Shown here: piece by piece, positions 1 through 56,046 of the stretch
How the letters are laid out: each line of letters opens with the position of its first letter
Position numbering within the stretch: position 1 is the first letter of the stretch
DNA from: Isoetes taiwanensis
Taxonomy: Eukaryota; Streptophyta; Lycopodiopsida; Isoetales; Isoetaceae
Assembly: GCA_021234155.1 (NCBI GenBank)
Contig: JAJEKV010000095.1
Coordinates: 3,606,621-3,670,620 of the forward strand
Direction of reading: 5' to 3'
DNA: 64,000 nt
Position numbers and translations under genes: made by a program
Notes under the pieces: model-generated
The model's database searches: none
The model's input: the letters and a program-made list of their open reading frames with translations, nothing else
Told to the model about the DNA's origin: nothing

Positions 1-79
1 CCCCCTCCCTCCCTCCCTCCCTCCCTCCCTCCTCCCCTCCCTCCCCTCTCCTCTCTCCTCTCTCTCTCTCTCTCTCTCT
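1..79. repeat. (CCCT)n/(CT)n microsatellite
   Basis: Runs of CCCT change into pure CT. The tract abuts, without spacer, the first codon of a 5'-truncated LINE fragment at 80. Similar tracts border the other LINE copies between 13.8 and 24.1 kb, so this one probably belongs to the same LINE-microsatellite nest. Confidence 0.95.
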
Positions 80-122
80 GCATTTGTTGATTTTAAAACC
101 GCTTTTGATACCGTGCCAAGAG
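80..122 (+). pseudogene. LINE-C reverse transcriptase, 5' piece
   Basis: Fourteen codons read as RT motif A, containing FVDFKTAFDTVPR, the conserved metal-binding Asp region of LINE reverse transcriptases. The fragment starts right after a CT tract, so the copy is 5'-truncated. It stops inside a codon at 122, where the 12.1-kb transposon begins, and its exact continuation is at 12,271. Joining 122 to 12,271 gives V-P-R-G-K-L-W in frame, as in neighbouring LINE copies. It is therefore the left half of LINE-C and not a separate gene. Confidence 0.9.
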
Positions 123-154
123 AACCATCATTCAATTAAATTGGGATTATGTCT
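123..154 (+). repeat. Left terminal inverted repeat (32 bp)
   Basis: Perfect reverse complement of 12,235-12,266. Identity ends abruptly at both sides: the outer edge is the AGAG duplication, and the inner edge is at 155. Confidence 0.95.
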
Positions 155-569
155 TAATTTTGGGATAAATTTTATATTGCACTTTTTTAGTAACTTTGTT
201 AAATTCACTTTTTTAGTAACTTTGTTGCCCTTAGACTAGAATAGACGTTAACATATAATCACACACGGGAATATAAATTCACACCTTAACTTCAAATTAC
301 AAAATCATATATCATGAAACTCAAGTAGTACACAACTTTTATTAAAAGTGATTGATACATAGTAACTGTTTATCATTTTTCCACCAACATCCCCAAGGAT
401 ATGAGAACCTTATTCCTTACATCCTGAGGTATTGTAACTCTCGCTGTTTTACTAGGAATAGTTTTTGGAGTCCATGAGTACAATACGGTTTCAATGTCTA
501 GCCAAAGATCGGGATCACTAGGATTTCTCCTCCACCTCTTTGTCCAACATTCTCAATATCTTTCTTTAT
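155..569. other. Left subterminal noncoding region of transposon
   Basis: AT-rich sequence just inside the left TIR. A direct repeat of CTTTTTTAGTAACTTTGTT occurs at about 182-201 and again at about 209-227. No coding signal is visible. It is a plausible transposase-binding or terminator region, by position only. Confidence 0.5.
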
Positions 570-3371
570 CGGTGACATTACTCAACCGATGTAATTGGAC
601 ACCACCATTCCATGCGCACCTTATTGAAGTTAACATCACCTTCTTCTTTGCAAATATCCGAGATAGTCCATCCCAACCACACTGGATAGGTCTCTAGATC
701 TGCTGGTTTTACTACTACAAATTGGTGGCACTCCACGTTAGTAGAAGGTTCATAACAATCCATGCCTAGATATTTTGGCCTATCCTTCTTAGGACCAACA
801 TAGTGTTTATCGATTGAGGAGGAGCATATGCCTTCACAATGCTACTAATGGTACCATCATCTTCACAACACCAGCCTAATGTTTTCCACTTACTTTTAGG
901 GAACCACCCTTCCAAAGAAATTGCTCGAGGATGTGTCTACCTCATCCAACAAGTTGATCACCTTCTTCCAATAATCTATCAATGCACGATTAGTCTCATC
1001 CGAATTAGTTTGCCAATGCTTGATGTAGTCATTGATGCCATCCTTAGTCAAGCCCAATTGCTTGACTTCTTGATTGGTTTTAGAGCTTTTGGTTGACCAG
1101 GAGGTATCATAGGCTTGCCATTTGCATCCCCCTGCCAAATTTCTGCCCCACCTCTCCACTTCTCCTCCTGAAGGTCTCATTTTCCATTGCATGATTGGAA
1201 TCCCTTCTCTCACCCAAAAAGTGAATTGAAGAGGTCTAGAATGACCTTCCATGTCGAGAGCATAACCATCCACAAAACTCTTCCAATCAGGCACTTCTTC
1301 TATGATAGATCCTATAGGAGATGGATTTGTACATCCATGAAATATTTCCAATAGCTTTGAGAAAGTTGGTAACCTGTGTCATTGCCTCAATACATGACTA
1401 TATTTTCCAAACAATGCATCCACATCCTCATGAGTATGTCCAGGGCATTAGGAACCCCAAATTGACTCTTTCAAAAATACCCACAAATTGTTAAGTAGGA
1501 TAGGAAAGAAAACATCCACCTATTCTTATTTTGACCAAAGCACAATTATCTAGTTGCAAGAGGAGCTTTCGGGCGAGATCTCGAGGTTTAGCACGAGATG
1601 TTGAAGCTCCAACATGTTCATTAGGTCCATTCCTCCTAAATCTTGCCTTGCTAAACTTTTCAATACTATTAGGGGTTCCATCCAACAATGCACTATGTAG
1701 TGCCTGGCTAGTCATGTAGGATCCTGTAGGTGACCATTGTAACCCTTCTCATAGTTTCTTAAACACCTCATGATACTCCCAATGTGAAAATCTGGACCAT
1801 CACTCCACAACTCTAAACCGAAATGGCCATAATAGGTGCAGATTTGCCCATGCAATATTGCCCCAAATCATTGAAATCTGCAAAGGGTATGATCTTCCAC
1901 ATGACTTAGGAATGTACTTGAATTGTGGAAGACAAGTCTTTGTTGGTCCATTTTATCATGTATAATACATAGATAGTTATTAGGTTCCATTGCAGATAAG
2001 GTCCTCCACATCCAATAAGTTGATCTACATGATAGTTGATCTGTCATATGGTCCTTCATATGTTCCCTTATCTTTGCCCTTAGACTTGGTTGCACAGTCT
2101 TATCTAGTGTCTCCTTCAGCTTAGCACATAAATTGCACTTGGCAAAGTTGTTTGAAGTTGCTATGGTCACATGCTTGAAATGCTTATTCCATAGCCTACT
2201 AAAACTGGGCTGGGATATAGAGGCCACTCCAAGTTCCCAAAGCAATGCATTTATTTCCTCTAATATGCTCTTCTGGGTACAATGGGATGGCAATCTCTTT
2301 TCAACAATAACTCTACCCTGTTCATCCTTCTTACTCTTATGTGGCATGTTTTACGTATTGAAATCCACATATCTTTCAAATATTTCCTTTGCACTATAGT
2401 TCTTGAGGTAGGCCTTACCAGGCCAGTGTTCCCATGCAATGCAATTTTACTACCATTTTCATGTCTCTTTTGCCAGTTGTGCCAAGAAGAGGTTGGAATT
2501 CCATGTATAGCCATCCATGCTTTTGAACATATCCACTTTCCATTCAATGGGAATCTTTTCTTCTTTGATCTTTCATCCCAATTGCATAGCCAAATATGGT
2601 GTACATGAAATTCCTCCCGCTATCACACTTATGTTCCCGATATGTAGCTCTTGCTCCCACCAACTCCTCTATTGTGAACATTCTAACACAAGAAGCCCAA
2701 CAACATTCACCTCCTCTAACCTTCATCATAGCTTCAGGAGAACAATCATAATCTGACTTGCATCTTTTGGTGGGATAATGTTTGAAAGTTGGAAGTGGCC
2801 TCTTGCTACACTGTGTGAACATTGTTGACAATGGTTCTACATCTATAGGAAACGTGTAGTTCCCCTCCAGTTGAATACTGTCCCTAGGCCATGCAACAAT
2901 AGTTGGAACCTCTAGTTGCTTCACACAAGCTAGGCATTCTTGTTTGCCTGAACCCTTTTCCTTCCAATTGTCATATAATTTTGAGATTGCCACACCTAAC
3001 TTTGTCCTCCCCTAATCTTTCATCATTCCTTTGCATTGATAGGATCTGCTAGAACAATAATCCCTTCTCCCTGCCTCTCTCATTTGCATGCATGCGGGAT
3101 CTTGACCTTTTGTTTTTCCAATCGACCCGAGTATAAAGTACAATTTCCTTTCCTTTGGCATCATCCTTTTCATTTGAGGCCTTTTCCTTTCCTTTGCCAT
3201 CATCAACATCATTTGGAGTCTTTTCCTTTCCTTTGCCATCATGAACATCATTTGAGGTATTTTCCTTTCCTTGGCCATCATGTTCATTAGTTGGGGATTT
3301 TTCCTTGCCTTGATCAGCATCATTAGGGGCTTTATTTTTAGCATTTTGCATGCCATTGACCTAGAATGCAT
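570..3371 (-). pseudogene. Decayed DDE-type transposase of the 12-kb element
   Basis: Successive minus-strand frames give one protein broken by frameshifts and stops. A Lys/Asp-rich N-terminus with 13-residue repeats lies at 3,351-3,049. A GRNFMYTIFGYAIGMKDQ block is near 2,600, and a helix-rich stretch ending in IIHDKMDQ is at about 1,966-1,944. LDNC is at 1,553-1,542, followed in a shifted frame by NKNRWMFSFLSYL. GHTHEDVDALFGKYSHVL is at about 1,443-1,390. The spaced DKMD, LDN...NKN and GHTHED signatures fit an RNase-H-fold DDE transposase of the DUF7869-like kind found in many eukaryotes. I recall this family from general knowledge and cannot verify the name here. The tail (763-578) is unassigned. 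It is the likely former mobility enzyme of the enclosing TIR element and is now inactive. Confidence 0.72.
3146..3340 (-). repeat. 39-bp minisatellite in transposase N-terminus
   Basis: Five adjacent 39-bp units start with TCCTTTCCTTTG-like sequence at 3,146, 3,185, 3,224, 3,263 and 3,302. On the minus strand each encodes a 13-residue unit resembling DGKGKEKTPNDVD, so period and frame are preserved and expansion took place while the region was coding. Confidence 0.85.
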
Positions 3372-3889
3372 AAAAATATATAGTAAGTTAGCATATCCAA
3401 ATAACCTCTCAATAACATGTTCATAAATGAAAGCCTCATATGTCTTATTCTATTTGATCATTCTATTTATATAATGGGATTCCCCAAGTTATTTTCCTCA
3501 ACATTATATATAAATAAAACCCTCTACTTATTAGCCTTATAACTTGTATCCTATAATAACCTTTGTAATAAATTTTAACCTTGTAAAAGGGATAACCCTT
3601 ATGAGGGTTAACCTTAAAAGGTTAACTTAACCATTAAAGGGATAACCTTGGTATCCTATAATAACCCTTATAATAAATTTAACCTTGTTATTACAAGGGA
3701 TAACCTTGGTATCCTATAATAACCCTTATAATAAATTTAACATTGTTATTACAAGGGATAAACTCGCGGTCCTTAAAACAATTAACCCGTGCAATAAATT
3801 TTCGCGGAAGTTATAATGGCTGCAGACTGAAATTTTGAAAGCGATTATTATTTCAAGTTAGCATTCGTTTCGAACTTTTTCTCTCTCAC
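3372..3889. repeat. AT-rich noncoding with 58-bp tandem repeat
   Basis: No coding signal. A 58-bp unit beginning GGTATCCTATAATAACCC occurs in tandem at 3,650-3,707 and 3,708-3,764. A degenerate related copy with GGGATAACCC and AGGGTTAACC palindromic steps lies just upstream (about 3,545-3,649). Confidence 0.8.
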
Positions 3890-4470
3890 TTTTTAAGCTT
3901 CCAATTCCGGGCATTCAGCGCTTCCAATTTCGCTAAACTTTACGCTTCCAATTTCTTCTCGGCTTCTATTTGCTTCAATCTGCTTCTCGGCTTCTATTAT
4001 ACACTTCAAACTTGGCTTAAGCTTCAATCGGCTTCTCGGCGTCTATCTGCTTTAAACTTCGGCTTCTATCGCTTTTTATCTGTTTTTTATCTGGCTTTCG
4101 GCTTCTACAATCTGTTTTTATCTTTTTTTATCTGGCGGCTTTTCGAGTTTTTTACCTTCTACAATCTTACCTTTAGGGTTTTCGGCTCAAAGGTTTTTTC
4201 GGCTAAAAGGTTTCTACTCGGCTTTTACGCTTTTACGCTTTAAACTTCGGCTTCTATATGCACCCCGGCTTCTATATGCTTTTTCGGCTCAATACAAGGT
4301 TCTATACAAGGTTTGTAGGCTCTATACAAGGTTTTTGGTTTTTTGGCTTTTCGACTTTGAATAACTTTGGTTTTTTTGTGTTAAAGCTTCTCATTACTGC
4401 TATTGCTTTTTTCTCCAAATTAGTTGCTATTGCTTTTTTTTCGACTTCTTAAGGCTTCTCGAATCACTTC
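3890..4470 (+). repeat. Degenerate GGCTTCTA-rich low-complexity tract
   Basis: Many scattered copies of CGGCTTCTA and GCTTCAATC variants make a pyrimidine-rich, imperfectly periodic stretch. A short open frame at 4,258-4,452 is only a by-product of this composition. Confidence 0.7.
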
Positions 4471-4624
4471 TTAAGGTTTCTCGGGTTAGTATTTCTTGTT
4501 ATTTACATAAAGTAGTTATTTTCCATAAAGCATGTTATTTACTTTTACATGCATCGGTTCTATTTCATATCATATCCGTTTCTCTATCATATCATATTAC
4601 TCTATCTCGTTTCTATTTCATATC

Positions 4625-4674
4625 GATCTATGATCTTGCTCTATGATCTAGATCATAGAGCAAGATCATAGATC
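4625..4674. repeat. Perfect 50-bp palindrome
   Basis: The arms at 4,625-4,649 and 4,650-4,674 are exact reverse complements with no spacer. The left arm starts GATCTATGATCTTGCTC. As RNA or single-stranded DNA it would form a 25-bp stem. It lies in the noncoding middle of the 12-kb transposon. Confidence 0.97.
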
Positions 4675-4992
4675 TTCACTAGCTCTTCCTCTATCCGTTC
4701 TAAATAATGAACTAAAACAATGAACTAAATATTGAACTAAACAAGGAGTATTATTATTATATATCCGCTCTAACCGGCTTTATATTTTGAATTCTCAGAT
4801 TACGATTCTCGCATTACGCATTATGTATTTTGTTAGAATAATATGTTGGAATGGGAGAAATGGCGCTTGGCATTTCTATTTTTGGGTTACGTTTTCCACT
4901 AGGTTAATCAAATCGGCAAAGGCGCGTTTTAGTTTGGCATTTCAATTTCATACGGCTCTATACAAATGCGGCGCAGCGTGTGAAATAGATCT

Positions 4993-5479
4993 GTGCTAAT
5001 TACTTTTTCTCGTTCTAGTGCCATGGATTTTCCTTATGCATGGACACCGGGCTGGGTTCAAATACACCGGGTGGTTCTAGTTCCCTCGGCGACCATCAAC
5101 TCTGGACCCCGTACAAGATATTACTTGAGTGTCTTTGTTCAAAACGTTCAAAGAGAGTTGGAGAATCCATTAGACAACCGTATCGGGGCCATGGGTACAC
5201 TTCCATCGCATCTATGGACATATCGGACTCCTCATGCTCTTAGTAAGGCTCATGCCAACAAATAAGTACAAGGATTTGATTTATAGTATCGTGGATCGAT
5301 ACAACACTGGTTTTGGAGACTCGACATCCTCGGGAAAGATGAGGATCCCTGTCATATCGGGTGGTGGTTCAGGTGGGACTTCTTTATGGATTGGGCGAGA
5401 TGAAGGGGCGCCTCGACATATTGTAGAGATAGAAAGAATTCGCTACCAAGCATTTTTGCGTAAGAAGAAATGTACATAA
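4993..5479 (+). other. Unassigned coding-like stretch
   Basis: Two partly overlapping open frames (4,993-5,265 with MDFPYAWTPGWVQIHRVV; 5,234-5,479 with YNTGFGDSTSSGKMRIPV) have more coding-like composition than the surrounding AT-rich DNA. Neither resembles a family I recognise. They may be exons or frameshifted pieces of a further cargo gene of the 12-kb element. No splice sites could be assigned with confidence. Confidence 0.3.
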
Positions 5480-5564
5480 CTTTTTTTGAATATGAATACA
5501 AACTCGCTGGCGCAATTTTGCACTATACTTTTACGTCATTAGTTTATTTTTTTTTTTATATGCA

Positions 5565-5825
5565 ATGTCGACAACATTGAATCTCGTGGATGCCCTCCAG
5601 CCAAGAGGACCAACCCCAAGAAACTACATATTTTCATTAATGTGTAGTTTCATGGGGTTGATAAGATCGGCTAAAGACCATCACGTAATTCAAAGTTCAC
5701 AACATCACGCAGATGATATGATATATTCTTTTTTTTTTGAATATCCAAATATACATACCTTTTTCGGACGTTCTTTTGGCCATGCTACAAATGTGCCCCA
5801 CGCTTTCACCAATCAGACGCTATAG
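5565..5825 (+). other. Unassigned 86-codon open frame
   Basis: An ATG-initiated frame begins MSTTLNLVDALQPRGPTPRN and ends at 5,825. It lies between the unassigned stretch ending at 5,479 and a noncoding region. No domain is recognisable. It could be a remnant exon carried by the 12-kb element or a chance frame. Confidence 0.25.
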
Positions 5826-6437
5826 GGATGTCTTCTTGGAAGAGCCTCATCTTCATAATTGCAGTTTAGAATAGAAATCTTCTGAAACTTGTTCCAAGAG
5901 GAACACCATGACACATAGAACTTGGATTCAAATCTTGATTTTACACAATCCTACTCTGGCTTCAAGTTTCTTTGTTAAAAGATAGCATTCTTCTCCGATA
6001 CCGATAAAGAACCGTAATGCATTGTAAAAAATAGAGGACGAAAAAATTGAGAACAAGAGAATGCATTGAATTCACCATAGTTCAGCGCAGACATCGAATG
6101 GGAATTGAAGGCGGCTCGATCGAATGGATTGAAGGCGCTCGATCGATCGAATGGGATCGAACGGATCTTGGGCGCCTCGATAGTCGATTGTTCTTGGCCT
6201 GATACTAGGAATGATCTTGGGCCTCGATAGTAGGTGGCCGATTAGGTGGTAGTAGATTGCCACATATCGTTTCTTGAAATTAATAATTAATTGTTATCTT
6301 GAAATTGCACTAAAAAAAAAAAACACAATTTAAATTTGTAAATGAGCTGACGGCGGTTAATTAAAATATTATAAATTTAAAAGGACTTTGAATTTGAATT
6401 TACTGTTTGTAAATCGGCGGCCTAGATTATGAACGCA
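5826..6437. other. Noncoding, GATCGA-rich
   Basis: No gene is seen. Between about 6,090 and 6,240 the phrases GATCGAATGG and CTCGATAGT recur in a degenerate GATCGA-rich patch. The rest is AT-rich, with an A-run at 6,312-6,323. Confidence 0.5.
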
Positions 6438-6447
6438 TACATATAAG
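6438..6447 (+). promoter_or_regulatory. Candidate TATA box of cargo gene
   Basis: The sequence CATATAAGTT lies about 50 bp upstream of the ATG at 6,493, a normal plant TATA-to-start distance with a short leader. Support is positional only. Confidence 0.35.
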
Positions 6448-7064
6448 TTTAAACCAAAACCCCAGTCTCATACTATCCAGACTTGCGGTTCTATGGCGTC
6501 TAGAGGATCTCGCCGCCGAGAAGGCCCGGTAGAGGTGGGCTTGACCCCCAAAGCACAAATCCCAAGCACGGAGGTCTTGAACAAGGTAAAGTTTTGATCC
6601 AACAAGCCTCTCGTAATTGATCTGTTTTTTGTTTTGTAATTGATTTACGTGTCCCTTTTATTGTTAGGTTTCTAGGATGTTTTTCAACTTTGTGTATTTT
6701 CTCGCGGTATGCGTGTCTCGTGTATTGTCTACCTTTCATATTGTTTCGTGTCATTTCTAACGCTTTTACTACCTTGTTTTGTGTGTTTTTGTTATAATCT
6801 TCTCCTTTACTCGATATGTTTTTTGTTGGAACAATTCTCCATTTTGTATAATGTAGACCGTGTAAGTCTTTACTTCGTATTCTCCAGTTCTTTTGACAAG
6901 TCTTTTTGTAGCCTAGTATGTCTCTTATAAAAGAGAAGTGTCTCAGAGGTCCCCTCTTAAGAACGCGCTTCAAGGGCGATTTATAATTATGAGTGGTTTT
7001 AGTTGTCTCGCTACTTTCCCCGTGTACAATTTATGTTTTTGAAAGTAGTAGGCGTCTATGAAAA

Positions 7065-7080
7065 CGCTGCTTCGGCAGCG
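7065..7080. repeat. C(TTCG)G tetraloop hairpin
   Basis: CGCTGC-TTCG-GCAGCG gives a perfect 6-bp stem with an exceptionally stable UUCG-type loop in RNA. The flanks (AAAA before, ATTTC after) match the other CG-rich inverted repeats of this element. Confidence 0.75.
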
Positions 7081-7930
7081 ATTTCATTACTCACCACATG
7101 ATTGTAACTTTCGTGATCTTCTAAAATGTGAAAAGAAAAGCAAAGCCTCAAGCAGGTCCGCCAGGACATCCGCACGAAAAAACCAAGAACGGATGAAGAT
7201 GTATCGATTGCAGATTTGGCACACGTTGTAGACCATTGACGATCTGACCGAAATAATGAAGGCTCGTAGAGCCTCCATGTCCGTAAGAAGATCTACCAGA
7301 GGGCTCAATGGTATGTGGAGATCTTCAAGACTAGCGGAAAGACGTGATCTGATTTTTCATGTCTAGAGTTAAGGAAACAGATCAAATGAAGAAAAACAAG
7401 GTATTCGATCACATGCTAAGAACAGGACGATTCTTCACCGTTCCGTATTACTTGAAGCGGGTCCTAAAAAATAAAAAGTATTGAAGAAGTTAAATTCTAT
7501 GCGGTGCTAGTTCCTTTAAAGAGACCGCCCTAAGAACGGATGAGGCCGCAGATAACCTCTTCAAATTTGGTGGTCGGTGGTGATCTATTGACACCAAAAA
7601 AATATGTGAAGGTCTCTCACCGTGAGAAGAGCAATCAGTACAAGGCCGTCAGCTAGTCTGTACCTACAAGCTTTAAAAGAGAAGGAAGATGCAAGTTCTA
7701 GAGCCAGGGAAACACCAGACGTTCTAGGCATTACAGATATGACTAGTGATGATGACAAGGCGAGACAGTTAGAGGCCATGAGCAAACTCAAGAAATATCT
7801 TCGACAAGTATCCACTGGCCTTAGCTTCACGATCCTATCCATGTCGACAGGGCTTTTCAGTCCACGAAGGCTATGTTTGTCGTTCCAGAAGATTTGACAA
7901 GCAAAGACGCAATGGAAATAGTCGACAAAG

Positions 7931-8197
7931 ATGATAGAAAACCCGTGGGCGGGTGCCAATGCCTGGCCGGATGTGGTGCCTTTTGATATGAAGACGAAGA
8001 AGGTGTTGATATGGAATAAACTTGAAGATTTAACTGGCAACCTCGATATTCACTTCATGATAATAGATGGCCAGCATTCAGTGGAGGCGCAGAAGGTTTT
8101 GATCAGTCAAGCACAAAAAACTGGAAATCAGTTATTCTATAGGCGTATTTGTTTTAAATTGCCGATTCCTCGGTGGCTCCACAACAAAGCTGAGTAA
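7931..8197 (+). pseudogene. DGQH-motif segment of cargo gene
   Basis: This 88-codon frame reads ENPWAGANAWPDVVPFDM, then MIIDGQHSVEAQKVLISQAQ. A DGQH(R/S)xxA signature after a hydrophobic strand is characteristic of ParB/Srx-like and DGQHR-type nucleotide- or DNA-associated folds in bacteria and of little-studied plant relatives. Upstream codons continue in another frame (FVVPEDLTSKDAMEIVDKDD at about 7,873-7,932), so at least one frameshift precedes it. The domain assignment rests on the short motif and is tentative. Confidence 0.4.
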
Positions 8198-8281
8198 TTA
8201 GCCGAAATCAGCGCATCTTTGAATGACATGGGAAAGACATTCCCCGCACAAAAAGGTATTTTATGTTCCACACATAGCGTT

Positions 8282-8545
8282 TAATCGGCGCCAGCGTTTA
8301 AGCTAATCACGTATTTACAAGAAAACGCGCTGGCGCCGATTTCTTCATATGGTCTAGCATTTTCTAAATCGTGATTAGCAAAACGCACCGGGCGCCGTTT
8401 TATGTTGTTATTTGTGTGACGGATTTACAAAAACGCTGGCGGCGAATTCTTCATCATGAAGAAATCGCCAGCGCCGCTTTGTAAATACGTGATTAACAAA
8501 AACGCTGGGGCGCTTTTTATATTGTTACTTTCACGACTGTTTTAT
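8282..8545 (+). repeat. CGCTGGCGCC inverted-repeat cluster
   Basis: AATCGGCGCCAGCG at 8,283-8,296 pairs with CGCTGGCGCCGATT at about 8,327-8,341. A second inverted pair (ACGCTGGCGGCGAATTC and GAAATCGCCAGCG) spans about 8,434-8,476, and AACGCTGGGGCGC occurs near 8,500. Relatives lie at 7,061-7,086 (a UUCG-loop hairpin), 10,578-10,692, 11,910-11,930 and 12,218-12,228. The cluster lies between coding parts of the cargo gene, probably in an intron. Confidence 0.8.
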
Positions 8546-10577
8546 TTTTTTTATCTAACGGCCCATATTTTGCAGGGGATGTGGAGCAGCTTGCGACGCA
8601 CTTCAGAAACAATGGATCGAATATGGAAAACCAATGCCGAGGCGGACAAAGGGCAATCTAAGAGTGCCGAATTCAAATTACTAGAAAGGACACTGTGCCA
8701 AACCATAATACAGGACAAGAACAAGGCCACTAGATCAAAGAAGAAAAAAGGGGATGCACAAGCTGGCACAGAAGAGCAAACGGTGCCAAAGGATGCCTGC
8801 AAGATTGTTTTTTCTTCTGACCAGGTATGGGAAAAGTGGAACGAATTTTGGGACGCCTATTCTAGGAAAAGAAGTTGCCAGATTCGTATGGCAGGTTTCC
8901 TCCGCAAGATACGTCTATTTTTGATATAGGTATCACAGAAATGAGAAAGGCACAAGGATTGGATGATGCAGAATTAATCTCTGTTCTAGATAGTTGCATC
9001 AGAAAGGAAGTTATCTACAAGAAAACGTCTGTAAACAAAAGCACTTGACATCTTTCAAGATGCATGCGAATCGATAAAGAATATGAAAGTCCCGAAAAAA
9101 GCATTTGGTGAAGAACCGCAAAGGCTCTCGTGAGACATGATGTTATCGGAGATAGGCTTAATGCAAAAGTACAACGATCTAATGATGACATTAAGAAATA
9201 TGTATTTTGGTCAAAAGATTTTGTGAAGCAAAGGCAAAGGCGAAGAATGTGGCAACTCTTAAGGGATTCACACGAAAGTTGCGTCCCGACCTAAAAAGAA
9301 AAGTTGCTTTGGTGAAGAAGACGGCAAAGAGACGAGTCTCCTTTTTTTCTATAAGGTGTCCATCGGTTATAAGTGTGCCATGCCGAGGTAGGTGAAGGGC
9401 CAACCGACATCACTCTATTTGTTCTTGATAGCCGTGGGCACGAGATGGACACGGGATGATGATTACAAAGACCTTCTTCAACACATGCGGTGGTTTGACG
9501 ACCGAGATGCATTATACTATCGCGGATAGTTTGCCACTCCGACATTTCCCACGATATGCACTAGTCCGCCGCAAATGATGTCGAATGCATTAAAGTGATG
9601 AGGCAAGCAAGAATGATAGATGAAAACAAAGATAGTGAGTTTAGTACCGAAAGTAAGATCTCACATGTGCTAGTCCTTATGATAGCCATTATGGATGATA
9701 AAGAATATGAAAGACTCAAGGGGAAACCGTAAGGTGAGAAGATTGCTTTGCAAAGTGCTATCGGCTAGATGAACCCCTATTGAAGAATGTTTTTTATGTC
9801 GAATCCAATTGGCGAAGACAAAGGGAAAGGGACCGCAGATGTGGATGTGGACCCGGACGAAGAGGAAGAGGAAGAGGAAGAAGAAAAACTGGTCGACGAC
9901 CCGCCCTTAATTCACCAATCAAGTATGAGCTAATCGACTACAGCATAAGGGGAGGCTGAATAAGTACGGGTTTTCTTTTGGCCCTTTCGAAGTTTTCTCG
10001 ATTGAAGCCTTCTCGCCCGTTAGAGTCTACGGTTGGGAATTTCATGTTGGAGGTTATGTCGGGCGGGAAGCTCAAGCTAGCTAGGAAATGCCAAAGTGTG
10101 GTCTCCGATGGTCAAGCCAAGGACTTCCTCGATATTTTTTTTCGAGAAAGTGCTAGAGGTGGCACCTAGGGGTCCGCTTAGGTAGTGCAAAAATAAAGCT
10201 TCCAGCTCTAAGTCCAAATTTTACCCAGCAGATCCGGCAGCAGAGCCGAAGAAATGAGAAAGCATATAGAGGGCATAAAGAAGAATATCGACAAGCAACA
10301 GCTTTAACTATGCGGCCGAGAGCGTGCCTATCCTTCCAATCACATTGGAAAATCCGGACGAAGTGGATGTAGGTAACGCTAAACGAAGAAGACAAAATCC
10401 TAGATGATACAATTGGATTCGGAAAGCTCGAGTCAGTTAGCATAAAGAGTAATGAAGTATCAACCATAGTTCAAACACTAAGTGATGTGGTCGACACTTC
10501 CGCGTAATCGAAGACAATACCGAGAGTAAGCTCATCATTCGCGGATGTTGAACAGAACCGAGAAAGGTATGTTATTC

Positions 10578-10692
10578 AAACAATGAAAATCGCGCCAGCG
10601 CCGATTTCAATTCTTCAAACAGATTGAAAATCGCGCCAGCGCCATTTCAATTATTCCACAGATTGAAAATCGCCAAGCCGCCGATTTCAATT
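10578..10692 (+). repeat. Three tandem GCGCCAGCGCC-bearing units
   Basis: About 46-bp units, each of the form GATTGAAAATCGCGCCAGCG followed by CCGATTTCAATT. The third is diverged (AATCGCCAAGCCGCCG). The core is the same as in the 8.3-8.5 kb cluster. Confidence 0.8.
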
Positions 10693-10719
10693 TTCTTTTC
10701 CTTGTCTCACAAGTGTGTG

Positions 10720-11250
10720 CTTTATTATTACGGACCTAATCCGGTTTCCTCCAAAATTACGGTGTTCGATTTGAATGGAGTGCTTTCAAAACGTTACCTA
10801 AAGCACAATTTCCTTTATCATGGTATGCAACGTAAACCATTTGAGACATATACGAAATGGGTATATCCGCCGTATCCGAAGGAGATGTTAGACCAAGCTT
10901 TCTTTTTATTTAGTTGTGCAATTTGGTCGCCGATGGAGAATAGAAATATACAGGAAGTTTTGAGAGTAGTTCCCGAAGTTACATAGAGATTGGGCATCTG
11001 TTTGGGATCGAGCAAATGTAAGTCATTCAATAACCCAAAGGATCCTACGGTAAAAAAAATATTTGTGAAATGCTTGGCGACATGATGGATGACTTGGGCG
11101 TTCGGGAGAAGGAAGACATCATTATAGTTGATGATGACGCCTTGAAGTGTTGCTTCAATCGTCCCATCACTAAATCCACCATCCTATCATCCCGAGGATT
11201 TTGACAAAGATGACTTCCCTGCCCGTTTTGTCAAAGATCTTGCACCTAAA
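10720..11250 (+). pseudogene. FCP1/NIF-like HAD phosphatase domain of cargo gene
   Basis: SSKITVFDLNGVL at about 10,756-10,794 matches HAD motif I of plant NIF/FCP1-like proteins, where DLNG replaces the usual DxDxT. LFSCAIWSPMENRNIQEVL follows at the place of the motif II W-[TS]-S region, and after frameshifts EDIIIVDDDALKCCFNRP at about 11,112-11,165 matches the acidic motif IV. Typical members dephosphorylate protein serines. Without the second Asp of motif I and with several frameshifts, this copy should be inactive. The order of motifs is what makes the assignment. Confidence 0.6.
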
Positions 11251-11832
11251 TAGCTACAGGAAAAAGGTCAAGAGATACAAACACTATACCCCAAGAACTT
11301 AATCGGACGGGGGAAATTGATGGGGACCTAGAGAAGATCGTTCTAGAAAGGGAACTTTTTGATATATATATATATGTATACAGGAAATACACTTTCAAAA
11401 AAGTTTTGAATATGAAATATACTTTACACCAAACTCTTTCGAATATATATTGTGTTCTTATATCAAGCATTATTGGTTCCGTGGTAATGATTGTTCTTTT
11501 ATATTACGTGTATGGTTTGCTATACTTGCAATAATTTGTATGTATATACGGCCAATAATTTAGGTGTCTATAAATACGTATGCATGAAATTGGCAAACCA
11601 TCGGCCTTCGCTTCCATATACGCTTGTTATTATGGCACATTCTATTACCCGCCAGATGAACCCGCATGCAGACCTCTGCAGTGCCGCGAGCTAGAAATAG
11701 AACTTCGTGGACTGGCTTGATGTCGTTGCTATGAATCCCGTCCCCCGCTTCTATCCCGATCCCTTTGATGTTGTAATCCATCTTATATGGAATCCAGAGC
11801 ATGGTTTGTTCATGATCGAAAGGATCTCAAAG

Positions 11833-12234
11833 ACCGCCGCAAGCCGCCGTCGGCGATGATTGGATTAGTTTTTAAAGTTTATGTTCCACTATAATACGTT
11901 ATTTATGGGAATAAAATCGCGCCACGCCGTGATTTGACCCTTGAAAATCTACGCTCAGAAAGCAACTTGCTTTGTTGTTATTTTTTTCGTAAAACACTAC
12001 AATTTCAATGTTTAGATTTCGTTGTCGCCGGTGATTATGCAATTAATAAGCAATTTCCTACTTTTTATATTGCCAACATTCTTTCATAATATGGGTCATT
12101 TGGACCGAATATTTGGATGCCCTTGCATTTCAACATAAAATGCATCTTCCTAGCCCGAAAATGAACTCAGTGCAAAAGTGTGGTTAATTCAATATAATGG
12201 TCAATAAATAGCTTATACGGCGCGATTTTGGAAT
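11833..12234. other. Right subterminal noncoding region of transposon
   Basis: AT-rich sequence with no coding signal. It contains two more degenerate ATCGCGCC-type motifs (about 11,917 and 12,220). The right TIR follows at 12,235. Confidence 0.5.
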
Positions 12235-12266
12235 AGACATAATCCCAATTTAATTGAATGATGGTT
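12235..12266 (-). repeat. Right terminal inverted repeat (32 bp)
   Basis: Exact reverse complement of 123-154. It is followed by AGAG (12,267-12,270), the second copy of the target duplication, and then by LINE-C coding sequence. Confidence 0.95.
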
Positions 12267-12270
12267 AGAG

Positions 12271-13691
12271 GGAAGTTATGGGATAGATTGGAGGCATTGA
12301 ATGTTCCAGTTAACATCAGACATGTTGTTAAAGTTTTGTATGAGCAAGTGCTGGTAGAGCTTTCATATCCTTGGTCAGAATGTGCCAGTGGAAGAATAGC
12401 AAGCAATATTGGCGTGAAACAGGGCTGCCCATTATCCCCCACTCTATTTGGAATTTTTATTGATGAATTGGAAGATTGGGTCGTTTTTCATGGTGGTGCT
12501 GGATCCCCGCTGCTGGCATATGTCATTGCCATCCTTTTATATGCAGATGATGTGGCTTTGTTTGCGCGAACAAAGCTGGATTTGGAAAGGCATCTTGAGG
12601 CCTTATCAACCTTTTGCTCAAAGACAGGTATGATGGTGAACACCACGAAGACGAAGGTTATGATTGTTGGCACAAGGAGCAAACATGATTTTACTTACAG
12701 AGACATGCCATTGGAAACCGTAACATCTTTTAAGTATTTGGAAATTATTTTTAGTAGCAATTACTCATGGAATGAATGCATAGAGCAGCGATACAGTAAT
12801 GCGCTTAAGGCGCTTTGTGCAATGCAAAAGCAATGCCATAAAATACATCTCTGGAATTGGGATTTGAAGAAGCAGCTTTATAGAGCACTTGTACAAACAG
12901 TTATACTATATGGCTGTGAAGTATGGGCTCCAAGCTTGACGGCTAAGCTATGGAAAAAGGTAGAGAATTTGCAAAAGAAATTTTTGCGCGCTGAGCTAGG
13001 GGTGAAAATGCAAACGCCATATGCGATGATGCTTGCAGAAGTGGGAATGATGCCTCTTGAGGGAGAAGCAATGATTCAGACTGCCTCTTACTTGCTCAAG
13101 GTCAATGCATTAAGTGAAGATCGCCTTCCCAGTATAGCTAAAAGAGCATCCACGAATAAAGGTTGGTACCATGATATAGTTTGTTGGTTACAGAAATGGA
13201 ATATCAGTGTAGATGAGTTGGTGGGCAAGAGAGATAGAATACGAGATCTGGTTTGTCATAAGTTTCAAATTAAAACCTGGAGCGCGGTCCAAGAGGTAAA
13301 GATGTCTTTCTACCAGCAATCTATTAACCCGTCTTTACAGGTAGCAAAATACTTGTCAGAGAATATATCTATCTCAAATAGGCATTTGCTTGCTCGTATG
13401 CGTTTGAGCTCACACTATTTGAAAATTGAGACTGGAAGATGGCAGAGGATAGAAAGGGCTGACCGTATATGTGAATTGTGTCCTGATGGTATGATTGAAG
13501 ATGAAGTGCACATCCTATTATACTGTAAGTGTTATGAAGACATTAGACTCAAATACTCTATACAAGAAAGTTCATTGGTTGAGCTCTTAGGACTCTCAAC
13601 AAAATACTTGTGTTCTTATATAGATGAGGTGCTACAGAAAAGAAGTATTTGCTTGAAAAAGGATGTGAAAAATATGGAGAGTGAGGAGTAG
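12271..13691 (+). pseudogene. LINE-C ORF2, RT and C-terminal part
   Basis: An uninterrupted frame of about 470 codons that continues the RT motif A fragment at 80-122. Visible are NIGVKQGCPLSPTLFGIFID (RT motif B'), LLYADDVALFA with the catalytic YADD, the thumb/connection region, and a C-terminal zinc-knuckle-like C-x2-C-x9-H-x4-C (CELCPDGMIEDEVHILLYC). The endonuclease domain and upstream RT are absent because the copy is 5'-truncated. Apart from the transposon insertion, this portion has no stop or frameshift, so the copy is fairly young. It is closely related in sequence to LINE-A and LINE-B downstream. The long frame could be mistaken for a host gene. Confidence 0.88.
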
Positions 13692-13990
<299 letters not shown>

Positions 13991-14049
13991 TCTCTCTCTC
14001 TCTCTCTCCCTCCCTCCCTCCCTCCCCCTCCCTCCCTCCCCCTCCCTCC
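13991..14049. repeat. (CT)n/(CCCT)n tract
   Basis: Tail of LINE-D and, at the same time, the 5' border of full-length LINE-A. Confidence 0.95.
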
Positions 14050-33176: not shown

Positions 33177-34047
33177 ATGATTTACTGCTTTTGGGATGTT
33201 TGAAAACGTACATGCCCTCCAACTTCATTTTAACAGTATACATGCCCTGAGAATCTTTTTCTCATTCCCTGAGTCTCTGATATCTTATCTATAGATCAGA
33301 GAGAGAAAGATCTGTGGAGACCAATTTTTCCACTATAATTCCCCTCTGATATGCTGCAATCTAGGTGGTGAGTTGTTAATCAATCATTGATCATCTGGCA
33401 TGGTTCAGACAAAAGACAGATTATATCCTTTTGTGCAAACACAGCTAGCAAATTCAGAAACATGATCAAAAGATGATGCATGTTGCACTTCATATAGTGG
33501 TAAAAATAATCTTTTACTGTATTCCACCACTAAGTATTTGCTATATTCTACCACTAAGTATTTGCTATTTCCCATCTCCTATAATCACAACCTTCTGTGA
33601 TGATTCATGCACCTTATATATAGCTGCAACAACAAAAGAAGAAAGGTTGAACTTCATAATGCCATAATGCATTTCAATACAAACCACCAACTACTTACTT
33701 TCTGTAGATGCCAACTGCCTAGCGACTAGAAGGATAAGTCAACATAAAATATATTTGGGCAGCATGCATGCGCTTGTTTTACTTGCTTGATTGGTGAAAG
33801 ATTGCATAAGTACTTGAAAAGGGATAAGATCCTGAAGTTCTTTGAGTTGTTAGGAAGCCAATAGCAAAACCAAGCCCAGACAACTGTTATGAATGTGACT
33901 AGACTGCATTTGGAATTTAACAACTGCATTGATGCTAGTTCAATGGGAACATTAAACTGATCTATACATTGAAGCCCTATACACATAGGTGGAACATCAT
34001 TTTTCCTTATTTACATGGAAGCGAGAAACTTGTTATAGGGCAGTTAC

Positions 34048-34865
34048 CTGAAACTCCTATTACATAAAGTTTATCCTTGATAACACGAGCCAAGCAGCCA
34101 GAACGGGTTGTAAACATGGAAACCACTTTTTTCCATTGTTCTGCCTGGGATTATACACCCACATGTCTCTGAAAGCAAATGAAAAAACATGGTACATATG
34201 GTACATATGAGCATATGATAAAGTACATTTGAGCATATGATACTAATGATTAATGAATCATTAAATAATCTGATAAGGATGCTTGTATAAGAATCAGGAT
34301 ATTAAACTAAGTAGTAACTCAGGATTCTTGATAAACTCATGATTATAGGGATTAACATCACCTTCTATTCTGCACTAGAGGCTAAATTTTGTTCAAAGCA
34401 AAATCAGAAGTGATGAGATCTTGTACTAAACCCTTGGGTAGAGGACATTGAGAATTTATGTTTGTGAACTGGACTACAGCAATGAGGATGAATATTTATT
34501 TTATATCTGAACTGATATACCAATGATCATGATGCATTGTCGAGGTAATAGATAAAAAGGACAGAGGACTGGATAAACAAGGGCAAAGTACCTACATTGA
34601 GCAAAAGATCAATGATGAATTGTTGAGATGATAGAGAAAAAAGACAGAGGTCTGCTTAGCAAGTCAGTTGTGGTACAAGTATAGATCAAGAATAACTAGT
34701 CAGTGTGATGAAGCTGGTACATGGAAAGAACAAGGATGTATATATAACCAGTGTGCTGGAGGAGTACACAAGAAAACTGGTATAATGAAGCGATTCTAGA
34801 AGAAAAATAAACCTGATGGCAACCTTGCCAAAGAGAGCTCCTCTCTGCTGCTCGACCGGATCCAT
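34048..34865 (-). pseudogene. Kelch-repeat gene, copy 1
   Basis: Exon 1 (34,865-34,813) encodes MDPVEQQRGALFGKVAIR and ends at a GT donor. An internal exon (about 34,168-34,048, acceptor TTTCAG, donor CAG/GTAACT) encodes a kelch-like stretch: DMWVYNPRQN, then after a one-base deletion in an A-run VVSMFTTRSGCLARVIKDKL and YVIGVS. In the paralog the A-run is one base longer and the exon is in frame. Kelch repeats form beta-propellers, often in F-box proteins. No F-box is visible here. The gene is head-to-head with the kinase at 35,139 (273 bp apart), implying a shared promoter region. The linkage of the two exons is inferred. Confidence 0.5.
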
Positions 34866-35138
34866 AGCCTACCGGAACTACTGCTCCGTCGCCACTGCTC
34901 TGTCGCCAAGCGTCGGAGGTCCAAATGGAGGAAACAGGTGGGTGTAAAAGGGTTAAAGGGTGGGCGAAGGAAGGGCAAAAAATGGGCGAAAAATAAGCAT
35001 TGGGGGGAAGAAGGGCACCCTCCCCCTAAAAAGGGATTACTTTTTGAAAAGGCCTTTTACAGCTGCGTATAACGGGAGCAGCAGGAAGAAGTTTCTGCAA
35101 AAAGAAGAAGAAGATCGGGTGGAAAAAAAGGCGGAAAA

Positions 35139-36030
35139 ATGGAAGACTATACTCTGTTGGAGACGTTGGGGCAAGGCTCGTTTTCAGGTGTGAAATTGGC
35201 GTTCGACAAGAGGAACGGGAAATCTGTGGCAATTAAGGAGATCAATTGCGGCAAAAAAAGTGCTGCGAAGCATCTGCAACAGGAAATCGAGGCACTCCGG
35301 AAGCTCACACACCCAAATATTATCAGAATCATTGAGGTAATTCCGTCCAGAAACAAGCTCTACTCTGTCATGGAATATGCCGCCGGCGGTAACCTATCGG
35401 AAAAGGTCACCTACAACGGAAAACTCCGAGAACCCCTTGCCCGGAAGCTTTTCCAAGTGACTCATTCTGGCGTGGAATATAGCCATGGCGAATGTCTACC
35501 ACGTGGATTTGACTCCCCTCAACCTTGTCCTCGATCTAGAGGGAAACCTAAAGGTGTGTAATTTTGGATCGGCCTTTTTTCGCATCAAGACCGGAAGCTA
35601 TTGTGGCTCCCTTTTTATTATGACAAGAAGCTATTGTGGCTCCCTTCACTATCTTGCCCCGGAAGTTTTAGGCAACCTCCCTTACGACCCCTCCAAGGTT
35701 GACATCGGTCTTGTGGAATTGCTATCCTCTTCTTTCTCCTTAGGTTATCACCCTTTCCCGACCCTAACTCCGTTATGTCACGCCCTAAAGCTCATATCAT
35801 TAAGAAGAATCATACCTCCAAACGGTCCTCTGTATCTTCCCTTCTTCAAGTTGCTACAATTGCTAATTATGATTTTCGCTTTCCATCTTGGTTTAGCCCT
35901 GGCGCTTGCAAGCTACTCTCCAAGATCTTTAGTAAAATCTTGATGCACCCCTCTAGCCCGCTAGAATCACCATTCCTCAAATCCTCAAAGATGAATGGTT
36001 CAAATTGGATTCTTGCATCTATTTAAACAT
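35139..36030 (+). pseudogene. CIPK-like kinase, copy 1 (frameshifted)
   Basis: ATG at 35,139 (MEDYTLLETLGQGSFSGVKL). The N-lobe with Gly-loop, VAIK lysine and HPNIIRIIEV is intact. A frameshift around 35,455 puts the remainder out of frame. In another frame VYHVDLTPLNLVLD (HRD changed to HVD) and VCNFGSAF (DFG changed to NFG) are seen. A local duplication of a GSYCGSL-type stretch precedes the P+1 loop (about 35,590-35,650). Further indels destroy helix F onward. The paralog at 50,065 has an intact frame. The family is plant SnRK3/CIPK by overall similarity, and the CBL-binding NAF region is not seen. It is non-functional. Confidence 0.8.
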
Positions 36031-36618
36031 AGTGACGAGGAACATTGCACCTCTCCTTGTAATGTTCTTCTCTTTGGAAGAGGTTCGATGGACCGTATTA
36101 CATCATTTAGTTATAAAGTTGTTCAAATGCTTTGTGGTCCTCCTTGTAATGTTCCTCTCTTTGGAAGAGGTTCGATGGACCGTATGACATCATTTTATTA
36201 TAAAGTTGTTCAAATGCTTTGTGGTCGTTTAACTATAGTCTGAGGACACCGTGTTACATTAAATTATTATAAATTTGTGCAAAAGTTTTGTGACCATTAA
36301 ATATAGTATCAATTCTTGGAATGAACCCTAGAAAATTTGCTGAAGTCGAAATATCCCAAGGGCCTGAGTAGAACTTGGGTATGCAAGGTCTAAAAACTCC
36401 ATCTTTAATAACTGAAAGAGTATTTTAGGGGCGTTGCATCCCCTAAATGTCGAGGACAATGGAGAAACTTTTGGGGTAGAATGAGAGGAATTAGTGGCTA
36501 GGCTAGAATAGGACTTGTTTACCAAGAGGCACTAGTGAGTGATACTTTCTCACTATGACTAGGTAGGGAGATGATGAGTGGCAACAAAACAATGTTAAGG
36601 TGGCAAAAATATAGTGAT

Positions 36619-47152: not shown

Positions 47153-48999
47153 ATCCAAGTCCAAATGGGGAGCCAATAAATGCACTGTCAATAATTGCAA
47201 GCTTTTGATGTTGCGAGCTTTTGAGGCATGGTTACACCAACTATTTTGAGGTTGCGAGCGTTTGAGGCATGGTTACAGCGACTGATGTTGTAATAGGTAC
47301 AACCTAGAAATAAAGCTTCCATATAAGATGCATGAACATAGCATGCTAAAACCAAAAGAAAGTGAATTATTTCTTCTAGCATGCAATCTCTAAAAGTAGA
47401 GCTACAAATCTTACATTTGGCTTATGTTTGAATGTCTTATGCATTGTGCTTAAATATACGTGCACAATTAGCTTATTTATCTAGGGCATACTCATTCTCT
47501 ACCCATTCATTCATTTCATTCACGAGGGCAACCCATAGTGAGATAATACCTGTGAACAACACCTTCTTTTCTCATGAATGGACACATCTAATCCACATCT
47601 AATCCAGGATCAAACTCAAACCCAAATATAGATTTGTCCCTTTATCATGAGTTGCAGAACGGGCAGCATGGAAGCCCGTAAATCCGACCCCATATCATAA
47701 CCTAGACCTGTAAATTATGTGCTGCACAGAGAAAAATGAGCCCATCTAATCCGACACAGCTAAACTGAGCTTGTATTGAAGAACTCAGCACTTGCTCAGA
47801 TAATTTATCAGGCATAATCGCAACCTTTAGCTGCAGAAAATTTGCTGATTATAAGTACCCTGCTGATTCTTGTTTGATCAGTCTTTTACACATGCTACGA
47901 TCATCAGAATGCGATTGCATTCTAACAGCGATGGACAGATTTGATCGAGCAGATCAATTTCGTCCCTTATTTCGGCTACCAGATATGGTCTGGAAAGTTT
48001 GCAGATTAATTACTTTGAAAAGGGTTTAAACGATTGGATAAATTGGGGAGGGTGCCCATGTAGCGCCCACTTAAGAAAACATATTTTATTACATGATTTA
48101 CTGCTTTTGTGATGTTTGAAAACGTACATGCCCTCCAACTTCATTTTAACAGTATACATGCCCTGAGAATCTTTTTCTCATTCCCAGAGTCTCTGATATC
48201 TTATCTGATGGCTGATAGATCAGAGAGAGAAAGATCCGTGGAGACCAATTTTTCCACTATTAATCCACTCTAATATGCTGCAATCTAGGTGGTGAGTTGT
48301 TAATCAATCATTGAATCAACCAAGCTTCCATCTGAAGCTTCAAGGACACACACAGATCATGCTCCAAGTATAGGCCTCTGGCATGGTTCAGACAAAAGAC
48401 AGATTATATCCTTTTGTGCAAGCACAGCTAGCAAACTCAGAAACATGATCAAAGGATGATGCATGTTGCACTTCATATAGTGGTAAAAATAATCTTTTAC
48501 TGTATTCCACCACTAAGTATTTGCTATTTCCCATCTCCTATAATCACAACCTTCTGTGATGATTCATATAGCTGCAACAACAAAAGAAGAAAGGTTGAAC
48601 TTCATAATGCCATAATGCATTTCAATACAAACCACCAACTACTTACTTTCTGTAGATGCCAACTGCCTAGCGAGTAGAAGGATAAGTCAACATAAAATAT
48701 ATTTGGGCAGCATGCATGCGCTTGTTTTACTTGCTTGATTGGTGACAGATTGCATAAGTACTTGAAAAGGGATAAGATCCTGAAGTTCTTTGAGTTGTTA
48801 GGAAGCCAATAGCAAAACCAAGCCCAGACAACTGTTAATGAATGTGACTAGACTGCATTTGGAATTTAACAACTGCATTGATGCTAGTTCAACGGGAACA
48901 TTAAACTGATCTATACATTGAAGCCCTATACACATAGGTGGAACATCATTTTTCCTTATTTACATGGAAGCGAGAAACTTGTTATAGGGCAGTTACATG

Positions 49000-49792
49000 A
49001 AACTCCTATTACATAAAGTTTATCCTTGATAACACGAGCCAAGCAGCCAGAACGGGTTGTAAACATGGAAACCACTTTTTTTCCATTGTTCTGCCTGGGA
49101 TTGTACACCCACATAAAAACATGGTACATATGAGCATATGATAAAACATGGTACATTTGAGCATATGATACTAATGATAATGAATCATTAAATAATCTGA
49201 TAAGGATGCTTGTATAAGAATCAGGATATTAAACTAAGTAGTAACTCAGGATTCTTGATAAACTCATGACTATAGGGATTAACATCACCTTCTATTCTGC
49301 ATTAGAGGCTAAATTTTGTTCAAAGCAAAATCAGAAGTGATGAGATCTTGTACTAAACTCTTGGGTAGAGGACATTGCGAATTTATGTTTGTGAACTGGA
49401 CTACAACAATGAGGATCAATATTTATTTTATATCTGAACTGATATACCAATGATCATGATGCATTGTCGAGGTAATAGATAAAAAGGACAGAGGACTGGA
49501 TAAACAAGGGCAAAGTACCTATATTGAGCAAAAGATCAATGATGAATTGTTGAGATGATAGAGAAAAAAGACAGAGGTCTGCTTAGCAAGTCAGTTGTGG
49601 TACAAGTATAGATCAAGAATAACTAGTCAGTGTGATGAAGCTGGTACATGGAAAGAACAAGGATGTATATATAACCAGTGCGTTGGAGGAGTACACAAGA
49701 AAACTGGTATCATGAAGCGATTCTAGAAGAAAAACAAACCTGATGGCAACCTTGCCAAAGAGAGCTCCTTTCTGCTGCTCGATCGGATCCAT
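49000..49792 (-). pseudogene. Kelch-repeat gene, copy 2
   Basis: Exon 1 (49,792-49,740) encodes MDPIEQQKGALFGKVAIR with a GT donor. The kelch exon (about 49,125-49,020) is in frame (VYNPRQNNGKKVVSMFTTRS ... KDKLYVIGVS), but its upstream acceptor is gone: about 18 bp (GTCTCTGAAAGCAAATGA in copy 1) are deleted at about 49,115. So copy 1 has splice sites but a frameshift, and copy 2 keeps the frame but lost the acceptor. It is divergent to the kinase at 50,065. Confidence 0.5.
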
Positions 49793-50064
49793 AGCCTACC
49801 GGAACTACTGCTCCGTCGCCACTGCTCTGTCGTCAAGCGTCGGAGGTCCAAATGGAGGAAACAGGTGGGCGTAAAAGGGTCAAAGGGTGGGCGAAGGAAG
49901 GGCAAAAAATGGGCGAAAAATGGGCGTTGGGCGGAAGAAAGGCACCCTCCCCCTAAAAAGGGATTACTTTTTGAAAAGGCCTTTTACAGCGGCATATAAG
50001 GGGAGCAGGTAGAAGTTTCTGCGAACAAGAAGAAGAACATCGGGTGGAAAAAAAAGGCGAAAAA

Positions 50065-51054: not shown

Positions 51055-51228
51055 AGACACTGTGTTACATTAAATTATTATAAATTTGTGCAAAAATTTT
51101 GTGACCATTAAATATAGTTTCAATTCTTGGGATGAACCCTAGAAAATTTGCTGAAGTCGAAATATCCCAAGGGCCTGAGTAGAACTTGGGTATGCAAGGT
51201 CTAAAAACTCCGTCTTTAATAACTGAAA
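51055..51228. other. 3' flank of kinase copy 2
   Basis: Matches 36,243-36,416. Includes the AAATTATTATAAATTTGTG stretch seen downstream of each kinase copy. No coding signal. Confidence 0.6.
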
Positions 51229-55851: not shown

Positions 55852-56046
55852 TTTTAGGGGCGTTGCATCCCCTAAATGTCGAGGACAATGGAGAAACTTT
55901 TGGGGTAGAATGAGAGGAACTAGTGGCTAGGCTAGAATAGGACTTGTTTACCAGAGGCACTAGTGAGTGATACTTTCTCACTATGACTAGGTAGGGAGAT
56001 GATGAGTAGCAATAAAACAATGTTAAGGTGGCAAAAATATAGTGAT
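55852..56046. repeat. End of segmental duplication copy 2
   Basis: TTTTAGGGGCGTTGCATCCC to AAAAATATAGTGAT matches 36,424-36,618. After AGTGAT the copies diverge completely, marking the duplication breakpoint. Confidence 0.9.

What the first reader, a model, noticed from the sequence alone, without database searches (positions are those of the whole stretch)
119..12270. 12.1-kb TIR transposon captured in mid-LINE, with base-exact boundaries
Perfect 32-bp inverted termini, an AGAG duplication on both sides, and restoration of the LINE RT frame on removal prove a single insertion of 12,144 bp. The element carries both a relic transposase and a large unrelated gene. Large gene-bearing cut-and-paste elements with 4-bp target duplications are rarely described in plants, so this may be a new family.
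Basis: partly seen in the sequence, partly recalled or inferred. Interest (0 to 1): 0.9.

Follow-up and report, generated by a model that had tools for sequence, protein, structure and literature searches.

The report
Two-gene 12-kb quillwort DNA transposon
The window holds one decayed copy of a large, very abundant cut-and-paste transposon family of a plant that is probably the quillwort Isoetes taiwanensis; beside a transposase it carries a second gene with a phosphatase domain that selection seems to have preserved.

Summary
The element is window 123-12266 (12,144 bp), with perfect 32-bp inverted ends and an AGAG duplication, inserted in a LINE reverse-transcriptase frame; the 11 other LINE copies fetched are all uninterrupted there.

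It is not single. The host assembly (1.658 Gb, matching Isoetes taiwanensis) holds 1,718 + 1,709 matches to the 32-mer at up to 3 mismatches; the reversed control has 0. In 15 of 16 end pairs read, the 4-bp duplication is exact.

Leftward the element encodes a transposase of Pfam family DUF7869 with three conserved Asp motifs; rightward, a second gene whose last exon is an NIF/FCP1-like phosphatase domain. Size, ends, 4-bp duplication and a possible DDD triad fit the Sola superfamily; descent from Sola could not be tested.

In 11 copies the second gene falls into two classes, 64-69% identical in DNA, with deep synonymous change and dN/dS below 1, while the transposase half is 92-98% identical throughout. 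The halves seem to have different histories, although tree topology alone does not prove exchange.

This is a new family and a new variant of a known kind. The cargo's function is unknown.

The parts
79..122 (+). left LINE flank (reverse-transcriptase frame), ends with target duplication AGAG 119-122
123..154 (+). left 32-bp terminal inverted repeat
   Evidence: 3,427 genome matches
899..3011 (-). transposase relic in pieces (open pieces 899-1378, 1494-1748, 1871-2350, 2547-3011; true gene ends not determined); DUF7869 PF25273, E 2.5e-4 here and below the family cut-off, E 3.6e-13 in a sister copy
1955..1957 (-). Asp of motif 1 (IIHDKMDQ), candidate catalytic residue
   Evidence: role inferred
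1548..1550 (-). Asp of motif 2 (LLLQLDN), candidate catalytic residue
   Evidence: role inferred
1424..1426 (-). Asp of motif 3 (GHTHEDVD), candidate catalytic residue
   Evidence: role inferred
8042..8242 (+). second gene, conserved exon relic with motif IDGQHS
   Evidence: no Pfam family
8648..10179 (+). second gene, long central exon relic(s), no known domain; frames of about 700 aa elsewhere in the genome
10693..11360 (+). second gene, last exon relic, NIF/FCP1-like phosphatase domain (motif FDLNGV); recognised in a sister copy, the window piece alone gives no Pfam match
   Evidence: (PF03031, E 2e-17 in sister copy C139)
12235..12266 (-). right 32-bp terminal inverted repeat
12267..13691 (+). 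AGAG duplication 12267-12270 and right part of the interrupted LINE reverse transcriptase
   Evidence: (RVT_1, E 2.4e-18)

Best explanation
This is a decayed copy of an abundant, autonomous-type, two-gene cut-and-paste DNA transposon of a lycophyte, most likely of the Sola kind. Inferred mechanism: a DUF7869 transposase recognises the 32-bp ends, excises the whole 12-kb unit and inserts it with a 4-bp staggered cut that becomes the duplication. The 4-bp duplications and precise ends are shown by the sequences; the catalytic role of the three Asp motifs is inferred. The second gene, facing outward from the transposase and ending in an NIF/FCP1-like phosphatase domain, is a regular part of the family. 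Its two deep lineages changed under purifying selection, while one recent transposase half is common to both, so cargo and transposase modules have probably been recombined. My guess for the cargo is an accessory protein that aids the element's expression or escape from silencing; that last step is not tested.
For: Copies: 1,718 + 1,709 TIR matches, control 0. 23 facing pairs among the 100 exact places listed, 15 of them 12,038-12,849 bp, against 4 neighbour pairs within 30 kb in other orientations. Exact 4-bp duplications in 11 of 11 copies and 15 of 16 pairs. 11 of 11 empty LINE sites. DUF7869: E 3.6e-13 in copy C67; 150 of 150 scored candidates match in the genome, 9,903 candidates in all. 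Motifs as intact strings: D1 in 10, D2 in 4, D3 in 8 of 11 copies. NIF E 2e-17 in copy C139; its motif string in 10 of 11 copies. Of 27 transposase/NIF pairs within 30 kb, 25 are divergent, 11 of them 9.9-11.6 kb apart. Cargo of C139 (class B) against class A: dS 0.50-2.61 and dN/dS 0.09-0.36 in 14 of 17 comparisons, dS not computable in 3. Of the first 30 NIF-exon rows 25 have no stop. Between-class identity 92-97% in element 1-3300, 53-71% in windows from 6601 to 10800.
Against: No Sola protein could be compared. None of 15 duplications is AWWT, the pattern reported for some Sola2 elements (PMC3627910). The transposase tree does not reject class A as one clade (AU p 0.199), so exchange rests on branch lengths; faster cargo change or homogenisation of the transposase half is not excluded. 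The dN/dS segments were trimmed to windows of at least 60% identical residues and all use one reference copy, which biases the ratio down; within class B it is 0.22-0.81. One of 16 end pairs (C24) has no matching duplication. Structure models were unusable (pLDDT 38 and 41). No copy was shown to be intact throughout. An apparent chimera, L007, dissolved on checking.
Confidence: 0.78

Rival explanations
1. An element of a superfamily of its own: DUF7869 defines a new lineage of 4-bp-duplicating transposases that is not Sola.
For: No Pfam transposase model hits the DUF7869 proteins scanned. TSDs lack the AWWT pattern of some Sola2 elements. No paper in the held library names DUF7869.
Against: 4-bp duplication, possible DDD triad and size agree with Sola as described. 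Uninterrupted relatives of 873-924 aa in probable Azolla contigs match the 888-aa Sola2 transposase in size, and Azolla is reported to have substantially more SOLA elements than Salvinia.
Confidence: 0.2
2. The second gene is a recent passenger captured from the host, as in Pack-MULEs, and is decaying without function.
For: The genome has ordinary NIF genes (best 195.8 bits). In the window copy the gene is broken, and within class B dN/dS is 0.22-0.81.
Against: The gene region is in all 11 copies read, in two classes of great synonymous depth with low dN/dS; many exons are uninterrupted. Duplications are 4 bp, not 7-12 bp as given for Mutator elements.
Confidence: 0.12
3. A rearrangement or assembly join that brought a LINE half next to unrelated DNA, not a transposition.
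For: The left LINE flank is short (about 40 bp).
Against: 15 of 16 exact duplications, 3,427 TIR matches and 11 of 11 empty sites.
Confidence: 0.01

Closest known systems
Sola superfamily of DNA transposons (Sola1/Sola2/Sola3)
   Same: 4-bp duplications, terminal inverted repeats, large size, a transposase with three conserved Asp motifs, presence in seed-free plants (PMC10741241, passages; PMC6786969, passages)
   Different: homology to Sola transposases untested; no AWWT preference; carries an NIF-bearing second gene not mentioned in the passages read
Sola2-Fanzor chimeric elements of dictyostelids (PMC3627910, passages)
   Same: 4-bp duplications; one shared Sola2-transposase part joined to different second-gene parts
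   Different: their second gene is Fanzor1 and the other parts show no similarity or are entirely different; here the second gene is NIF-bearing and its two classes are homologous
Pack-MULE and gene-carrying CACTA elements of plants (recalled)
   Same: plant cut-and-paste elements that carry extra genes
   Different: other duplication lengths; those cargoes are recalled as mostly gene fragments, here a multi-exon gene that shows purifying selection

Membership tests
Sola | 4-bp target duplication | tested here: met
   15 of 16 end pairs; the miss is C24 (L012/L013)
Sola | transposase with DDD catalytic triad | tested here: inconclusive
   three Asp motifs conserved; catalysis and fold not shown
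Sola | transposase homologous to known Sola transposases | not testable with these tools
   no Sola sequence held; the original paper PMC2727372 not held
Sola | TIRs of 11-1124 bp, size mostly 2-9 kb with some over 15 kb | tested here: met
   32 bp; 12.1-12.5 kb in 11 copies
Sola2 (AWWT-duplicating type) | AWWT duplication | tested here: not met
   0 of 15
Mutator / Pack-MULE | 7-12-bp duplication | tested here: not met
   4 bp in 15 of 16
CACTA | 3-bp duplication and CACTA ends (recalled) | tested here: not met
   4 bp; ends AACCATC
Ginger | Gypsy-like integrase | tested here: not met
   no integrase domain in the element pieces scanned, which are a part of all frames

The most novel reading that the evidence does not exclude
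A eukaryotic cut-and-paste transposon family with a swappable, selected cargo module: a phosphatase-type protein that helps the element persist (for example by acting on RNA polymerase II or on silencing), exchanged between elements while one successful transposase half sweeps through. DUF7869, a domain of unknown function, would be the catalytic domain of this transposase group.
Probability: 0.3. Interest if true: 0.75.

Novelty: new variant of a known kind. Interest (0 to 1): 0.55.

Why it matters
The evidence ties a domain of unknown function (DUF7869) to a transposase in a lineage where DNA transposons are little studied, and describes a 12-kb family that may fill about 1% of the genome (inference: 3,427 ends, half as many elements, 12.3 kb each, about 21 Mb of 1,658 Mb). 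A second gene retained across two deep classes asks directly why a transposon needs a phosphatase-like protein. The genome paper removed repeats that resemble plant proteins from its repeat library (PMC8566536, passages), so such gene-bearing elements may have been counted as host genes (inference).

Tried and rejected
A viral or bacterial origin: no relatives of the transposase in viral contigs, phages or plasmids. In genome contigs 23 stretches matched a pattern and 7 encode a relative, all 7 in contigs of one 'Trichormus' bin; I read these as fern DNA from an Azolla sample (inference from the bin's name).

A chimeric copy, L007, seemed to join class B ends to class A interior; finer comparison did not support it, and I dropped it.

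Structure prediction of the transposase failed to give a usable model, so no fold search was run. PDB sequence searches gave nothing significant (none; one chance-level row each, E 0.14 and 0.75). A third gene in the middle (window about 4984-5825) is repeated in the other copies, but its frames are broken almost everywhere; left open. Linking other NIF loci of the genome to DUF7869 elements failed for lack of overlap in the listed rows: one pair within 30 kb, on the same strand, between 150 DUF7869 rows and 90 NIF rows, and one more, convergent, against 12 selected transposase rows (the 90 are a part's 151 matches).
Full report
CHECK OF THE OBSERVATION. The 32-bp ends at 123-154 and 12235-12266 are perfectly complementary and unique in the window. 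AGAG flanks both sides and the element is 12,144 bp. To test the insertion I searched the host genome with 300 bp of the right LINE flank: 782 candidates, 40 scored and matching, 12 loci fetched, one of them the window itself. In the 11 others (L062-L072) a probe made of the joined flanks runs through the site without a gap at 93-99% identity. The reading of a single insertion into a LINE reverse-transcriptase frame stands. The left LINE part is only about 40 bp, preceded by a microsatellite.

HOST. The window lies in G000, 1,658,258,908 bases in 1,110 contigs. The published Isoetes taiwanensis assembly is 1658.30 Mb in 204 scaffolds plus 909 contigs (PMC8566536: passages, one section). I take the host to be that quillwort; this is an inference from size and contig number.

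THE FAMILY. With up to 3 mismatches the 32-mer occurs 1,718 times forward and 1,709 times reverse; the reversed control pattern has none. Only the first 100 places, all exact, are listed there. Among these, 23 form facing neighbour pairs within 30 kb, against 4 neighbour pairs in other orientations; 15 of the 23 are 12,038-12,849 bp, one is 13,752, one 13,954, and 6 are 18.2-27.5 kb. Ten pairs were read in full: all have exact 4-bp duplications (ATAA, ATGA, GATT, AGTT, CAAA, TATA, CCTC, AACT, CATT, GATT). Of the further pairs readable, C5, C23, C45 and C48 also match and C24 does not. With the window this makes 15 of 16. The listed copies have perfect ends by selection, so end decay is underestimated. 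Of 30 sampled ends, 29 match the element somewhere; one of these (L012) matches only over about 400 bases and L011 does not match at all. Six of the transposase ends (L001, L002, L003, L014, L017, L018) belong to a sister group at about 77-82% identity. I saw no short deletion derivative among the 23 facing pairs.

TRANSPOSASE. On the minus strand, window about 899-3011, lie pieces of a protein of Pfam DUF7869. The match is weak in the window (E 2.5e-4, below cut-off) and clear in sister copies (E 3.6e-13 in C67, 2.1e-6 in C112). Three motifs, HDKMDQ, LQLDN and GHTHEDVD, are all readable in the window; as intact strings they are found in 10, 4 and 8 of 11 copies. Motifs 1 and 3 align with IDGMDQ and GHTHDQID of a well-preserved host DUF7869 protein (L051, 600 aa, E 2.5e-54). 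Motif 2 was not placed against its LQLDN by that alignment; I match it by its letters. The same three motifs (IDGMDQ, LDN, GHTHDHID) are invariant in 7 proteins of 873-924 aa from contigs that I take to be Azolla DNA. The catalytic role is inferred from this conservation and from the duplication. AlphaFold models had pLDDT 38 and 41 and are not used. The genome has 150 DUF7869 matches over cut-off among 150 scored of 9,903 candidates, and the tool's 14 control genomes none. No paper in the library mentions DUF7869.

SECOND GENE. On the plus strand, window about 8042-11360, lie relics of exons. The last one is an NIF/FCP1-like phosphatase domain (PF03031, E 2e-17 in copy C139; the broken window piece alone gives no match) with the motif FDLNGV, found in 10 of 11 copies. 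The central and first parts match no Pfam family. Several of the best matches of the central exon lie in frames of about 700 aa without inner stop (717, 714 and 708); 457 aa of one of them were read. Of the first 30 matches of the NIF exon 25 have no stop, at 94-100% residue identity; ranking by score favours intact copies. Taking the 150 listed NIF-exon hits and the 150 listed transposase hits, 27 pairs lie within 30 kb and 25 of them are divergent, as in the window; 11 are 9.9-11.6 kb apart.

TWO HISTORIES. Over element 1-3300 all 11 copies are 92.3-97.6% identical, whichever cargo class they carry. Over 7000-10100 they fall into class A (window, C30, C67, C106, C112; 88-93% within) and class B (C74, C85, C113, C115, C139, C170; 84-93% within), 64-69% between. 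In 300-bp windows the class split appears near element 6300-6600, just before the second gene; element 3301-4500 aligns poorly within both classes too and says nothing on the split. Trees give A and B full separation with a long branch (0.27 + 0.22) for the cargo, and no supported separation for the transposase half; however, holding A together there is not rejected (AU p 0.199). Codon comparison of C139 with class A gave dN/dS 0.09-0.36 in 14 of 17 comparisons; in the other 3 dS was saturated. Within class B it is 0.22-0.81. Segments were trimmed to windows of at least 60% identical residues, so the ratios are too low; but at such synonymous depth unselected sequence would hardly offer such windows at all (inference). 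I read this as old cargo lineages under purifying selection, joined to one young transposase half. Gene conversion of the transposase half would look the same.

COMPARISON. Sola elements are described as having a DDD transposase, 4-bp duplications, TIRs of 11-1124 bp and sizes mostly 2-9 kb with some over 15 kb, and as known from moss but seemingly not common in flowering plants (PMC10741241, passages). Azolla is reported to have substantially more SOLA elements than Salvinia (PMC6786969, passages). Sola2-Fanzor chimeras of dictyostelids share one transposase part and differ in the rest (PMC3627910, passages). The element works like a Sola element. Membership is likely but not shown, because no Sola transposase could be compared, and the AWWT preference of those Sola2 elements is absent (0 of 15).

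LIMITS. Searches for print covered only the held open-access library, seen as listings except where passages are named. Passages of PMC4455052 and PMC9033089 were also seen.

Noticed in passing
G000, genome-wide: NIF-domain matches: 54 rows at 80.7-195.8 bits that look like host genes or their pieces, then about 95 dispersed rows at 61-80 bits, many with open frames of 200-430 aa. Five of the latter overlap the cargo rows, so other NIF-bearing repeats or more distant cargo lineages probably exist.
   Followed up: partly
G000 pairs C23, C45, C107, C155; C1027, C1077, C1045: Copies about 11-15 kb longer than normal. The extra DNA lies at different places (between transposase and central exon, or between central exon and NIF exon), which suggests nested insertions, perhaps of the family into itself.
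   Followed up: partly
window 1-78, 13792-13896, 13994-14049: LINE sequences abut CT/CCCT microsatellites; possibly the LINE's insertion preference or its tail.
   Followed up: no
window 52000-56000: G+C rises to 0.57-0.64 against about 0.40 elsewhere; no Rfam family reaches its threshold in the window and only one frame of 180 aa or more lies there.
   Followed up: partly
window 33618-36418 and 48566-51229: Near-identical duplicated blocks about 15 kb apart (97-99% in the parts listed); the second holds a protein kinase (PF00069, E 5.6e-59).
   Followed up: partly
window 59316-63995: Long tandem array with a unit of about 203 bp that contains shorter repeats of about 23 bp.
   Followed up: no
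L001, L002, L003 (contig C2): Three ends with the same flank ATAT at about 111, 139 and 161 kb: probably one insertion multiplied by segmental duplication.
   Followed up: no
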